Shown here: in pieces, positions 41,414 through 45,740 of the stretch | Layout of the letters: each line of letters begins with the position of its first letter | Position numbering within the stretch: position 1 is the first letter of the stretch | NCBI GenBank assembly: GCA_017413025.1 | Contig: JAFPVE010000010.1 | Span: 1-45,747, forward strand | From: Acetobacter sp. | Lineage (GTDB): Bacteria > Pseudomonadota > Alphaproteobacteria > Acetobacterales > Acetobacteraceae | Reading direction: 5' to 3' | DNA length: 45,747 bases | The notes under the pieces: generated by a model | Told to the model about the DNA's origin: nothing | Databases searched by the model: none | Seen by the model: the letters and a program-made list of their open reading frames with translations, nothing else | Position numbers and translations under genes: made by a program

Positions 41414-44260
41414 TTATATTTTTTGTTTCCAACTTTTTCGCATAAACTCGGAAAAATCGCGACGTGAGAGCACTTTGGCACAATCGCGCCAATCTTGTTC
41501 TTTTGGTTCTGCAGTAGCACGATAGCGCAGATCAAACCCCGTTGCCTCTTTTTGGTTTTTAATATATTCGTCCATTTTTTCGTCGAGTGTTTCAATATCT
41601 TCAATCCATTCATCTTTAATGGTATCGGGCAGAGATCCGAATAAATCAAACCGATCGCGCATACGTTCCGATAACCGATTATAAACTTTCTCATCGACTG
41701 TTTGCGCGTTCACGAGGTTGAGCATATCGACCTCATCGCGACGTTGACCAAAACGTTTAATACGCCCAATGCGTTGCTCCAAACGTGTCGGGTTCCAGGG
41801 TAGGTCAATATTGATTAACGCCCCTAAAGTTTGTAGGTTGAGCCCTTCACACGCGGCATCAGTCGCTACCATGAGCTTAATTTGATGTTCAGCCACCATT
41901 TTTTTAAGCACTTCACGCTCGACCCCAACGCTACTCCTTTCTTTATAGAGTTTGCTTCGTGTGGCTCCGGCGTATAAACCCACAGCATAGTCGGGGTAAC
42001 GTGCGGCTAAAGAGTCTGCTACCCATTGCGCGGTATCGTAATATTGGCTAAAAATAATAACCCCGTAATTTTTAAGCCAGTTTTCTTCTTCAAGAAAATA
42101 GAGAATAGCTTTGAGTTTGGGGTCTTCCTCATTTTCTTCTATGTCTTCTAAATGTTCAATAAGGCGTTGAAGGGCTTCTTTTTCTTCTGGCATATTTTCT
42201 TCAAGTTTGAAAGTGAGTAAATCGCCATCGGTTTCCTCTTCTTCTGTTTCTTCTTGCACGGCTTTCCCCTCGAGTAGCATGCGTGCTGTTTTAAGCCCGG
42301 CATAAATGCTTGAGCATATCCGTTGCTCCATCAGGCTTTTCATAAAACCGCCTTTTCTTTTTCCGTGAGAAAGTGCTTTGCCAAAAAGGCAAGCTGCCTC
42401 GTACGCTTCTTGAAAACTTTGGCTTGTACGTAGAGCTTTGCCCTCAAAAAGAGTTGTAAAACCTCTTTTATTCTCGTCTTTAACGGCTTCTTTATCGGGG
42501 TGGAGTATCACGCCTATTCTGCGTAAAAGCTTTTTTTCTTCTAAATCAACGCGTTTACGTAAAACAATATGACGTATCAGCGGGTTTTCGCGTTGAAAAA
42601 ACGTCGTTCCGTTAATTTCTCTCTCGAGCTCCTCTCCTAAACATTCACGCGTATCCCAGCGCAAAGAGGCAAGCGATTTTTGGCATTCGGTTTGCTTTTT
42701 ACCTAAATCCAAATCTTGACGTATAGCGTCTAAAAGTTTTCGGGCATTAGGCTCATCTGTCGAGTCAATAAGAGGCAACGGTGCGCGTAACAAGTCCCAC
42801 CCCTCGTCAAGGTCTGTTACTTTTTCTTTTCCAGAAAGAATGGGCAGCACCTTCTCGGGGTAACGCCATTTCGAGAGTGTATCCCCCAAAACAAACGCCC
42901 CTTTTCCCTCGGCTAATATCCTCATCAAATCCCATAAATCTTCGGGGGCTGTTTGGATCGGTGTGGCTGTGCCGAGTAAAACATGGTCAGCCCGTCTGGC
43001 AATATCTTGCATAAAACGCAAAAGGTTATTCGGCTTACGCTCTTTTTCCCCCAAAGCGCGGGCACTTCTGGCTTTATGGGCTTCATCGAGAATAACAAGC
43101 CCGTAATTTTCCTCTAATAAATGCTTTTTTTCGTCGCTATCGCGCATCATTAAACCCGTTGAAATAATGCCGATCCGCCATGGACAACGAGTAATTTCTT
43201 TAGCCCCTTGCGGTGAAATCGCACGTTCTTTATGGTCTAACCACACTTTTTTTTGGGTATCCCAACGCGCACAAGGTACATCAAGTTTATCAAACATTTC
43301 GGTCTGCCATTGTTCGCACAAAGTAGCGGGGGCAAAAATAGCCACGGGTTTTACCCGTGTCATATTATTCGATATAGGGGGCTTCGCGCGTGCTATATTA
43401 TTCGAAGATAGAGAGGAGTTTGCCTGTTTGGCATATTCCGGCAATAAACACAAGGTAAGCGCGGCTGTCCCCAATGAAAGCGTTTTACCAAGCCCGACTT
43501 CATCGGCAAGTAAGAGGCGTACACAACCGTGATTGTTATAATGGCGTAAGACTTCTGTTAAAAAGCCTTGTTGCCACGGCTGTAGCGAAGCCCCTTCGCG
43601 ATAAAGCGGTGATTCAATTAAGGCGGCAGGAGCAATGTCTTTTACCTCTTCAAGCTCTTCAAACGTAATTTCTTGCCGTTTTCCACGGCGAACAATTTCT
43701 TGAATCACCACGCGCGGCAACTCTTTGGCGTGTTGCCACAAATACTCAAATTCTTCCTCAATCCATAAAATTCCCTCGGCAGAGGTATCTTCCCAAAGAA
43801 TTTCGTAATGGTTTTGCCACCCATTACGGGTTTCGTTCATCGAACCTATAAAGCCCACTTTTTGCCCGTCGGCACGCGTAATAACCCCAGCTTTTCCGTG
43901 CAAAAATCCGCAAATATCATCGGGGGCAACCCGCACCACTTGCCCATGTTTTTGTAAAAAACGATCAAGCTGGCTATAACGTTGTTTATGGTAAAGCGCT
44001 TCGGCGGCTAATGGCTTTTCATTCCACCGCCCGATCATTTTTGCCTCACGCACTTGTGCAACTTGTAAATCTTCAGGGTGAATATCGCTGTTACACACAA
44101 TTTTAACATCGGGAATATCGTATAACAGCTCGCCCGCCACTTCAAAAAGTGAGCTTGTAAAATACCCCGCAATGCGTTTATAGGCTTTTGCCCCTACAAG
44201 ATGTTCTTTCAAAAAACTATCTAATGTCCCTAATCGTGATGAAAAACGCCGAATAGTCAT
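41414..44260 (-). CDS. Fused phospholipase-D-like / SNF2-type helicase
   Basis: This 948-residue protein joins two modules. The N-terminal part (about 1-180) is PLD-like with a single HKD-type motif: His121 and Lys123 in FLHGKAGVI, then GSMNE at 139-143. The SNF2/SF2 motor follows: LQPWQ at 226-230, Walker A DEVGLGKT at 253-260, DEAH at 392-395, TATPIQ at 431-436, and C-terminal motifs VATDAACEGLNLQ and LEQRIGRIKRFGQ, as in RapA/HepA-like proteins. An acidic coiled stretch (EEETEEEETDGD) lies between the lobes. PLD domains of this type can be nucleases. Similar parts occur in DISARM (DrmC, DrmD), but as separate proteins. The start ATG has a poor ribosome-binding site. Confidence 0.85.
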   Translation of the reverse strand: MTIRRFSSRLGTLDSFLKEHLVGAKAYKRIAGYFTSSLFEVAGELLYDIPDVKIVCNSDIHPEDLQVAQVREAKMIGRWNEKPLAAEALYHKQRYSQLDRFLQKHGQVVRVAPDDICGFLHGKAGVITRADGQKVGFIGSMNETRNGWQNHYEILWEDTSAEGILWIEEEFEYLWQHAKELPRVVIQEIVRRGKRQEITFEELEEVKDIAPAALIESPLYREGASLQPWQQGFLTEVLRHYNNHGCVRLLLADEVGLGKTLSLGTAALTLCLLPEYAKQANSSLSSNNIARAKPPISNNMTRVKPVAIFAPATLCEQWQTEMFDKLDVPCARWDTQKKVWLDHKERAISPQGAKEITRCPWRIGIISTGLMMRDSDEKKHLLEENYGLVILDEAHKARSARALGEKERKPNNLLRFMQDIARRADHVLLGTATPIQTAPEDLWDLMRILAEGKGAFVLGDTLSKWRYPEKVLPILSGKEKVTDLDEGWDLLRAPLPLIDSTDEPNARKLLDAIRQDLDLGKKQTECQKSLASLRWDTRECLGEELEREINGTTFFQRENPLIRHIVLRKRVDLEEKKLLRRIGVILHPDKEAVKDENKRGFTTLFEGKALRTSQSFQEAYEAACLFGKALSHGKRKGGFMKSLMEQRICSSIYAGLKTARMLLEGKAVQEETEEEETDGDLLTFKLEENMPEEKEALQRLIEHLEDIEENEEDPKLKAILYFLEEENWLKNYGVIIFSQYYDTAQWVADSLAARYPDYAVGLYAGATRSKLYKERSSVGVEREVLKKMVAEHQIKLMVATDAACEGLNLQTLGALINIDLPWNPTRLEQRIGRIKRFGQRRDEVDMLNLVNAQTVDEKVYNRLSERMRDRFDLFGSLPDTIKDEWIEDIETLDEKMDEYIKNQKEATGFDLRYRATAEPKEQDWRDCAKVLSRRDFSEFMRKSWKQKI
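43356..43405 (-). repeat. 33-bp duplication inside the PLD-SNF2 helicase gene
   Basis: Two diverged copies with a 33-base offset read, on the plus strand, CGTGTCATATTATTCGA (43356-43372) and CGTGCTATATTATTCGA (43389-43405). In the protein they give SNNIARAKPPI followed by SNNMTRVKP (about residues 286-305), an in-frame 11-residue duplication just after Walker A. It probably lengthens a surface loop. Confidence 0.75.
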
Positions 44261-44279
44261 TGATATAGATTTCCCTTTA

Positions 44280-44305
44280 ATCCCTAACTTAAATCCCTAA
44301 CTTAA
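44280..44305. repeat. Perfect 13-bp tandem duplication upstream of the helicase gene
   Basis: The plus-strand unit ATCCCTAACTTAA occurs twice head to tail (44280-44292 and 44293-44305). It lies 20 bases before the helicase start, in the spacer shared with the divergent membrane-protein gene. Confidence 0.85.
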
Positions 44306-44513
44306 TCTCTGAAAACTCTATCGTTCATGTGTTGTTTGTTTGATTTTTCGGATATTTTTTGGCACTTTAAGCGCATACCCCTATCAACTCTTATCACCCC
44401 TCATCAATGCCCCTTTTAATAATCGATGTTCGCCTCCATTATTGAGAATAAATAAAAATTCAATAAGAATAAATAAACCACGTCGCTTTATGGCTTTATA
44501 GGATTTTTTCAGC

Positions 44514-45257
44514 ATGCCCTTAAATTCTTCCTTAAATGCTTTAGTTATTTTTTGTCTTGTTTTTATGCCCGGTATTGTATGGAACTTTATCGCCTTAAAA
44601 ATTTACCCGAGAAGCCGTAGTTATCCTAATGCTAGCATATTCATTATACAATCGATTATACTCACAGTTATTACTTATTGTATTGAATTTATGGGGTATT
44701 CCCTCATTTGTTGCTTATCGTTTTATCTCCTCCATTATACGCTTCCAACTATTTCCCCAGACGATTTATTACTTCAAAATTTTTCCGGACCTGAATTTAT
44801 TTTTGAAATCGTTGCGATATTCTTGGCAGTGGTTTTAGCCGTTATCTATTTGTTTTTATGGAAACGGTATTTTAAGATTGATCCGTTAATATTTTTTCTT
44901 CGGAAGTTCAAACTCACGCATGAGTTTAGTGGTTTAGATGTTTGGGACGATTCCATCGTCGAGCACCAAGAAACAGAAGATAAATCTGGAACAAAAGGGG
45001 CTTGGGTACGCGTTTTTGATTTTGAAGACAAAACCATATGCGAAGGGCGTATTCGTGTCTGCTCACATCTGCTGAACGAAACAAAAGGGATTATCGAGCT
45101 TGAGTTACACGAGGCGACTCTTTACGATTGTAGTGAGAGTGGCGATTTTTATAATAATAATCATAAGAAGAAGGTTATTACAGAAAATAGTATTTTATAT
45201 GTCAGTAAATCACGAGAATCCGTTATCATAGAACTCTTAAAGGAAAAGGAAAAGTAA
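44514..45257 (+). CDS. Three-TM membrane protein, DUF6338-like
   Basis: The 247-residue product has an N-terminal hydrophobic helix (ALVIFCLVFMPGIVWNFIAL), a long hydrophobic stretch at about 42-75, and a third helix (EIVAIFLAVVLAVIYLFLW, near 98-118). A soluble C-terminal half of about 130 residues follows, containing LDVWDDSIV, GAWVRVFDFEDKTICEGRIRV and IIELELHEATLYD. This resembles my recollection of the DUF6338 family, whose function is unknown; I am only moderately sure. AGGA precedes the ATG by about ten bases. It is divergent from the PLD-SNF2 helicase across a 253-base spacer, and on the same strand as the small acidic gene downstream. A membrane-bound effector or sensor partner is conceivable. 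Confidence 0.75.
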   Translation: MPLNSSLNALVIFCLVFMPGIVWNFIALKIYPRSRSYPNASIFIIQSIILTVITYCIEFMGYSLICCLSFYLLHYTLPTISPDDLLLQNFSGPEFIFEIVAIFLAVVLAVIYLFLWKRYFKIDPLIFFLRKFKLTHEFSGLDVWDDSIVEHQETEDKSGTKGAWVRVFDFEDKTICEGRIRVCSHLLNETKGIIELELHEATLYDCSESGDFYNNNHKKKVITENSILYVSKSRESVIIELLKEKEK

Positions 45258-45385
45258 AGGAAGGGTAAAGGAAAAGACGTAAAAACCTCATACGACAAAG
45301 ATCATATGACAAGAAATAGCGTAAAAAAAATCCCCGTCAAAAAGTCCTTATCACAAAAGTGAGCCACAAAGAGATAACGCTACGC

Positions 45386-45493
45386 ATGCCTCCCACGCAT
45401 AACCCTACTCGTAAACCAAGGCATAACCCAAGGCATAACCCAAGGCATAACCCAAGGCATAACCCAAGGCATAACCATGACAGAAAACTCTAA
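45386..45493 (+). CDS. Possible leader peptide made of PRHN repeats
   Basis: A 35-residue frame starts at ATG 45386 (MPPTHNPTRK), then reads PRHN five times through the 12-bp repeat, and ends HDRKL at TAA 45491-45493. Its end overlaps the start of the next gene (ATG 45477) by 17 bases in another frame, an arrangement that would allow translational coupling. The peptide is very basic. The ribosome-binding site is weak, so this is a candidate only. Confidence 0.35.
   Translation: MPPTHNPTRKPRHNPRHNPRHNPRHNPRHNHDRKL
45417..45476 (+). repeat. Five perfect 12-bp tandem repeats abutting a start codon
   Basis: The unit CAAGGCATAACC is repeated five times without mismatch (starts 45417, 45429, 45441, 45453, 45465). 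The ATG of the next gene follows at once. Every copy carries AAGG, and the last one lies seven bases before that ATG, as a ribosome-binding site would. A degenerate partial copy (ACGCATAACC) lies just upstream. Confidence 0.95.
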
Positions 45494-45740
45494 CACGCCT
45501 CAATATATCTCGCCCACACCCCCAACGGATCAAGAGCAGCACCCAGATCAAGAGCAAAACCCGACTCAAAACCAAGCCCTAGAAGCCTATTTGGCAGGTT
45601 ATGAACGGATCAATTCTGTTTTTGATTGCTTTAGTCTGCCCAACACAGCAGAAAATTTCATGCCTTTTCCCCCAGATGTTCCCAATGACTCAAACGATCA
45701 CGTATATGCTACAGAAGTGTATGATGTCGACAAAGAATAA
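45477..45740 (+). CDS. Small acidic Gln/Pro-rich protein of unknown function
   Basis: The 87-residue product has a low-complexity N-terminus (PPTDQEQHPDQEQNPTQNQ), then a probably helical core (ALEAYLAGYERINSVFDCF), and an acidic Pro/Asp-rich tail (PPDVPNDSNDHVYATEVYDVDKE). There is no signal peptide or membrane segment. The ATG at 45477 is preceded at seven bases by AAGG from the last 12-bp repeat. I recognise no family. It ends seven bases before the window edge, so its downstream context is unknown. Confidence 0.6.
   Translation: MTENSNTPQYISPTPPTDQEQHPDQEQNPTQNQALEAYLAGYERINSVFDCFSLPNTAENFMPFPPDVPNDSNDHVYATEVYDVDKE

What the first reader, a model, noticed from the sequence alone, without database searches (positions are those of the whole stretch)
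41414..45740. Candidate undescribed system: PLD-SNF2 helicase with a divergent membrane protein and a small acidic protein
A single protein joins a one-HKD PLD-like domain to a complete SNF2/RapA-like motor. Across a short spacer stand a three-TM protein with a soluble C-terminal half and a small unknown protein. Known defence systems use the same kinds of parts: DISARM has separate PLD and SNF2 helicase genes, and many systems end in a membrane effector. Here the nuclease and motor are fused and the set is compact. The rest of the window is housekeeping, so this block looks accessory. The divergent layout does not prove that the genes work together.
Basis: partly seen in the sequence, partly recalled or inferred. 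Interest (0 to 1): 0.72.

Follow-up and report, generated by a model that had tools for sequence, protein, structure and literature searches.

The report
Lone effector of known phage-defence operon
The large gene is an already catalogued bacterial anti-phage nuclease-helicase that normally sits in a four-gene operon, but here it appears without its three partner genes and beside two unrelated small genes, so this does not look like a new defence system.

Summary
The ORFs are real. The 948-residue protein scores above the curated cut-off of NCBIfam NF042964, 'phospholipase D-like domain-containing anti-phage protein' (1174 bits, cut-off 1100), and matches PADLOC PLD_Helicase over residues 1-944 (1313 bits). 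It is the HKD-SNF2 effector of DUF499-centred 'Type-2 BREX-related' systems (PMC12839542), normally encoded with a DUF499 ATPase, DUF3780 and a DUF1156 methyltransferase. At least one partner lies beside the helicase in 26 of 28 other loci examined. Of the other two, one has a broken helicase and one contig starts 152 bases upstream of the gene. None of the 28 matches the 247-residue membrane protein, a divergent DUF6338 relative found elsewhere without the helicase. The 87-residue ORF has no credible relative found. The proposed three-gene system is not supported. One mild surprise remains: no DUF499, DUF3780 or DUF1156 match was found in the host assembly, so the helicase looks like an intact orphan. 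It keeps 174 of 174 residues invariant in 16 relatives and has host-like codon usage. The contig ends 1.5 kb upstream in a draft assembly, so hidden partners cannot be excluded.

The parts
41414..44260 (-). PLD (HxK...GSxNE)-SNF2 helicase, 948 aa; NF042964 / PADLOC PLD_Helicase; effector type of Type-2 BR (DUF499-type) systems
   Evidence: alignment with 16 relatives
43736..44110 (-). PLD-like nuclease domain (residues 51-175); H120, K122, S139, N141, E142 invariant in 17 sequences
42905..43534 (-). SNF2 N-terminal motor lobe (residues 243-452); K258-T259 (Walker A), D391-E392 (DEAH)
   Evidence: motif names recalled
43382..43435 (-). 18-residue insertion (residues 276-293) found in none of 16 relatives
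41747..42106 (-). Helicase C lobe (residues 719-838); Q828-R829...R832 (motif VI)
   Evidence: motif name recalled
44261..44513 (.). 253-base divergent spacer; stops in all three frames on the helicase strand; no match to DUF1156 proteins
44514..45257 (+). 247-aa three-TM membrane protein, divergent DUF6338 relative; not shown to belong with the helicase
45477..45740 (+). 87-aa acidic ORF, no credible relatives; codon use host-like, may be a real gene

Best explanation
The 948-aa gene is the nuclease-motor effector of a known restriction-like phage-defence operon (DUF499 ATPase, DUF3780, DUF1156 N6-methyltransferase, PLD-SNF2 helicase; 'Type-2 BR'). In this genome it is most likely an orphan, left after, or acquired without, the other three genes. 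Shown: family membership, kept active-site and motor residues, operon context elsewhere, no partner match in this assembly, no association with the two neighbouring ORFs in 28 other loci. Inferred: the SNF2 lobes move along DNA by ATP hydrolysis and bring an N-terminal half-site nuclease, probably a dimer acting through a phospho-histidine intermediate (recalled from other PLD nucleases), to cut DNA. In full systems the methyltransferase would mark self-DNA while DUF499/DUF3780 recognise the invader and license cutting (proposal of PMC12839542). Without them the protein is most likely tightly gated or weakly active, kept as a single-protein DNA nuclease/translocase. The DUF6338 protein and the 87-aa ORF are probably independent genes at a variable site upstream of radA.
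For: NF042964 1174 bits over cut-off 1100; PADLOC PLD_Helicase 1313 bits, residues 1-944. Partner gene(s) beside the helicase in 26 of 28 other loci. PADLOC numbers DUF1156_MTase, DUF3780 (two models), DUF499 and PLD_Helicase consecutively (PDLC02189-02193). No match in the own genome to PF04465, PF06634, PF12635 or a DUF1156 protein, while PF12635 rang in 4 of 4 positive controls and the DUF1156 protein in 1 of 1. The window keeps 174 of 174 columns invariant in 16 relatives. Codon score -1.068, inside the range of 14 other window genes (-1.024 to -1.211); genes of five relatives score -1.17 to -1.45. Of three congeners whose radA was looked up, the closest (84%) has an AbiL-type pair upstream of radA. 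DUF6338 in 0 of 28.
Against: The contig stops 1487 bases upstream of the helicase start, on the side where partners would lie, and the assembly is a draft (45 contigs, 96.5% complete, no 16S match). In 7 of 28 other loci extra sequence or genes lie between methyltransferase and helicase (L004, L063, L070, L071, L103, L105, L107), so partners could lie beyond the end. PF04465 and PF06634 were tested for sensitivity only by ringing in 1 of 14 standard control genomes. The codon ranges overlap. No functional assay of the window gene is known to me.
Confidence: 0.72

Rival explanations
1. A complete Type-2 BR system is present, and the three partner genes lie in sequence that was not assembled or not binned, just beyond the contig end, with the DUF6338 gene and the 87-aa ORF in between.
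For: The contig ends 1.5 kb upstream of the helicase; draft assembly without a 16S match; extra sequence or genes between methyltransferase and helicase in 7 of 28 loci.
Against: No match to DUF499, DUF3780 or DUF1156 in 1.46 Mb at 96.5% completeness. The two ORFs upstream point away from the helicase; in the five of those seven loci whose intervening genes were annotated or matched a family (L063, L070, L071, L103, L105) they run with the operon.
Confidence: 0.2
2. One reading: PLD-SNF2 helicase plus membrane effector plus small protein work together.
For: Adjacency and divergent layout only.
Against: 0 of 28 other helicase loci match the membrane protein, and the 87-aa ORF gives one chance hit of 31 residues at E 0.17; the two convincing DUF6338 relatives lie in genomes without the helicase and a third lies among unrelated genes on a plasmid; the helicase has other, known partners.
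Confidence: 0.04
3. The helicase is a remnant without function that has not yet broken (a fate of the orphan, so it overlaps the best explanation).
For: Partners not found; one of 28 loci (L109) shows such a gene in pieces with no partner match in a 20 kb stretch.
Against: A 948-codon frame that is intact and keeps 174 of 174 family-invariant columns, with host-like codon use, which points to long residence under selection; a recent gain from a donor of similar codon use would look the same.
Confidence: 0.25

Closest known systems
Type-2 BREX-related (BR) system helicase (PMC12839542); NCBIfam NF042964; PADLOC PLD_Helicase PDLC02193
   Same: Full-length homology; N-terminal HKD-type nuclease fused to SNF2 motor; 67% identical to the Vibrio and Cycloclasticus copies
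   Different: No DUF499, DUF3780 or methyltransferase found with it; an 18-residue insertion (276-293) absent from 16 relatives
DISARM DrmD / BREX BrxHI-BrxHII / HmaA / DpdE
   Same: Related SNF2-type motor, best-matched stretch in the C-terminal lobe
   Different: Far below curated cut-offs where these exist (DrmD 181 bits against 610, DpdE 114 against 500)
RapA
   Same: Motor lobes; best solved-structure match by sequence (8so8, E 1.3e-14)
   Different: 92 bits against cut-off 576; no PLD domain (recalled)
DUF6338 (PF19865), for the 247-aa protein
   Same: Aligns along its length with three proteins that pass the DUF6338 cut-off, at 26-27% identity
   Different: Itself below Pfam's cut-off (12.5 bits against 26.5)

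Membership tests
NF042964 phospholipase D-like anti-phage protein | Score above curated cut-off over the whole profile | tested here: met
   1174.2 bits, cut-off 1100, profile 1-895 of 895
Type-2 BR helicase | N-terminal HKD-type nuclease fused to SNF2 motor | tested here: met
   Pfam PLDc_2, SNF2-rel_dom, Helicase_C; alignment
Type-2 BR helicase | TUDOR domain absent at the N-terminus | tested here: inconclusive
   No TUDOR model among the Pfam matches at E up to 1; no structure was predicted
Type-2 BR system (whole) | DUF499 ATPase | tested here: not met
   No match in G000; draft assembly, sensitivity shown only by 1 of 14 control genomes
Type-2 BR system (whole) | N6-methyltransferase (DUF1156) | tested here: not met
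   positive control W01 found; draft assembly
Type-2 BR system (whole) | DUF3780 | tested here: not met
   4 of 4 positive controls rang; draft assembly
DISARM | DrmD-type helicase over its cut-off, PLD in a separate gene | tested here: not met
   181 bits against 610; PLD fused
DUF6338 (247-aa protein) | Score above Pfam gathering cut-off | tested here: not met
   12.5 against 26.5 bits; relatives L028, L029, L079 pass
Anti-phage activity | Protection against phage in cells | not testable with these tools
   Family name only

The most novel reading that the evidence does not exclude
The helicase works alone in this lineage as a methylase-free, single-protein HKD-SNF2 nuclease. That would mean the effector of a BREX-related restriction system can be uncoupled from self-marking and still be tolerated and useful, perhaps by sensing DNA state directly.
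Probability: 0.2. Interest if true: 0.4.

Novelty: new member of a known kind. Interest (0 to 1): 0.12.

Why it matters
It removes a false candidate system from the list. What remains is a small testable point: whether the nuclease-motor of a DUF499-type restriction system can persist and act without its methyltransferase and recognition partners.

Tried and rejected
New compact system of three proteins: rejected on co-occurrence. DISARM or Dpd membership of the helicase: below curated cut-offs; BREX and Hma models score far lower than PLD_Helicase in PADLOC. Operon remnants in the window: tblastn of four sets of DUF499/DUF3780/DUF1156 proteins gave only chance-level hits (best E 0.12). Phage origin: 0 of 50,697 phage records hold 80% of the helicase, 11 hold a partial match; no phage hit for the membrane protein and no relative confirmed in viral contigs. 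Naming the host: no 16S match; Alphaproteobacteria is inferred only from recalled gene orders, so no organism is named. Literature: searches gave nothing on this protein family; others listed PMC12839542, the only paper I found that describes it. I looked at passages only of four other papers (PMC11078745, PMC12458937, PMC12715929, PMC9252829), none of which describes this helicase there. DUF6338 occurs in one paper of the library, seen in the listing only. From memory I suspected that the four-gene set is the 'restriction-like' system of Gao et al. 2020; I could not confirm it and do not claim it.
Full report
What is there. The window is one complete contig of a 1.46 Mb draft genome (G000:C26; 45 contigs, 96.5% complete). 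Left of them lie a radA-like gene and a pcm-type gene (Pfam domains), a Cys-tRNA, valS (named by eye) and other housekeeping genes. The contig ends 7 bases after the 87-residue ORF.

What the large protein is. It matches NCBIfam NF042964 (phospholipase D-like domain-containing anti-phage protein) over the whole profile at 1174 bits, above the equivalog cut-off of 1100, and PADLOC PLD_Helicase over residues 1-944 at 1313 bits. Pfam sees PLDc_2, SNF2-rel_dom and Helicase_C. In an alignment with 16 family members, 174 columns are invariant among the 16 and the window keeps all 174; they include H120, K122, G138, S139, N141, E142, K258, T259, D391, E392, Q828, R829 and R832. The aspartate of the textbook HKD motif (recalled) is not conserved: position 127 is T here and varies in the 16. 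Other helicase families score far below their cut-offs (DrmD 181 bits against 610, DpdE 114 against 500, RapA 92 against 576).

Known biology. PMC12839542 (sections 28 and 30 with its sub-sections read in full, abstract and passages elsewhere) describes DUF499-centred BREX-related systems. In Type 2 the helicase carries an N-terminal HKD nuclease in place of a TUDOR domain and is accompanied by a DUF499 ATPase, an N6-methyltransferase and DUF3780. The authors propose an RM-like mechanism and report the system in 1120 taxa, with the HKD-helicase fusion in 921. PADLOC's models for the four proteins are numbered consecutively (PDLC02189 to PDLC02193).

Context in relatives. I examined 28 other loci, in stretches of 5 to 27 kb. 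Three came from species genomes. Thirteen were plasmid records (H1-H5 and H12-H19, of 20 records with 80% coverage; six further A. baumannii plasmids, H6-H11, listed at the same 45.3% identity, and H20 at 26% were not fetched). Three were E. coli chromosomes, of 49 of 5426 genomes with a match. At least one of DUF499, DUF3780 and DUF1156 lies beside the helicase in 26 of 28. All three are seen, whole or in part, in 21 of 28, not counting L104; among these DUF499 is cut by the stretch in L070 and L103, split in L071 and in two frames in L072. The remaining seven: L004, L102 and L107 (only DUF1156, at a contig edge), L105 (DUF1156 but no DUF3780 or DUF499 in the 3.5 kb held upstream of it), L104 (DUF499 and DUF3780 on the other side of the helicase, a 33-residue scrap of DUF1156), L109 (helicase in pieces, no partner match in 20 kb) and L110 (contig begins 152 bases before the gene, so uninformative).

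The window differs. No DUF499, DUF3780 or DUF1156 match was found in G000 by Pfam model or, for the methyltransferase, by protein. Controls: PF12635 rang in 0 of 14 standard control genomes but in 4 of 4 genomes or records chosen as positive controls, and not in G000; the DUF1156 protein rang in 1 of 1 control record and not in G000; PF04465 and PF06634 each rang in 1 of 14 standard control genomes. Remnants in the window itself are at chance level. A full-length match is absent from 36 of 36 other same-genus genomes (best 94 bits, against 2165 for the query itself), and 1 of 385 genomes of a class sample is over the family cut-off, the one being G000.

The neighbours. The 247-residue protein is below the DUF6338 cut-off (12.5 against 26.5 bits) but aligns along its length with three proteins that pass it (26-27% identity). 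Of 147 related genomes searched, 6 match at E 0.01 or better including its own; two are convincing (G111 E 1.7e-7, G116 E 3.4e-6), the other three are near E 0.005 and two of these have stops inside. G111 and G116 have no NF042964 protein (best E 1.1e-8 and 2.2e-5, levels that generic helicases give). A plasmid DUF6338 relative sits among unrelated genes, and L028 lies between hisG-like and murA-like genes (named by eye). DUF6338 queries find none of the 28 helicase loci, though they find each other and the window; the 87-residue ORF gives one chance hit of 31 residues at E 0.17.

The site. I looked up radA in three of the 36 congeners and in two same-family genomes. In the closest (G012, 84%) the stretch upstream of radA holds an AbiLi/AbiLii-type pair; in G002 it holds mlaE and an ABC gene; no other window gene lies within the stretches held around radA in the five. 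So this side of radA is variable, and in two small low-GC genomes it carries defence-type genes. Two genomes are too few to call it a hotspot.

Age and selection. The helicase's codon score (-1.068) lies within the range of 14 other window genes (-1.024 to -1.211). Genes of five relatives score -1.17 to -1.45, three of them still inside that range, so the sign is weak: it fits long residence, or a donor with like codon use. An insertion of 18 residues (276-293) is absent from 16 relatives; a diverged 33-base tandem duplication (43346-43405) overlaps it.

Mechanism. Shown: domain make-up, kept active-site and motor residues, family, normal partners. Inferred: ATP-driven movement on DNA delivering a half-site phospho-histidine nuclease; in whole systems, self-marking by methylation and licensing by DUF499/DUF3780. 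For the window copy I think an intact but uncoupled effector most likely, perhaps weakly active alone. I put about 0.2 on partners hidden by the assembly. The confidences overlap, since decay (0.25) is one fate of the orphan.

Verdict. Real ORFs and a correct guess of a defence-type protein, but a known family and not a new system. The orphan state is a minor curiosity.

Noticed in passing
L086:481-2054 (G012 contig C24): AbiLi/AbiLii-type pair (AAA_21 plus RloB) directly upstream of radA in the congener with the closest RadA of three tested, at the site where the window has the helicase.
   Followed up: partly
L103:10598-13409 and L105:6714-9582: Two extra genes between methyltransferase and helicase; in L103 they match PADLOC candidates PDC-M28B and PDC-M28C, and the first gene of each pair matches ParA/ArsA-like ATPase models. 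Possible accessory pair of Type-2 BR systems.
   Followed up: partly
L109:8820-10266 (G659): Helicase relic in pieces, 94% identical to the E. coli copy in one piece, with no partner match in a 20 kb stretch.
   Followed up: no
L066:8947-11744 (Sinorhizobium plasmid): Helicase annotated as two overlapping ORFs, SNF2-related and helicase-related.
   Followed up: no
L072:2235-5248 (Rhizobium plasmid, unannotated): DUF499 gene matches in two pieces in different frames, so it may be frameshifted.
   Followed up: no
L104: Rearranged operon: helicase followed by DUF499 and DUF3780, preceded by a 33-residue scrap of DUF1156.
   Followed up: no
window 43343-43435: Perfect 7-base inverted repeat (43343-43359) and a diverged 33-base tandem duplication (43346-43405) in and beside an 18-residue insertion in the helicase absent from 16 relatives.
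   Followed up: partly
window 45416-45475: Five exact copies of a 12-base unit (CCAAGGCATAAC) directly before the 87-aa ORF.
   Followed up: no
G000: No 16S rRNA match in the host assembly, so it is probably incomplete in at least one respect.
   Followed up: no
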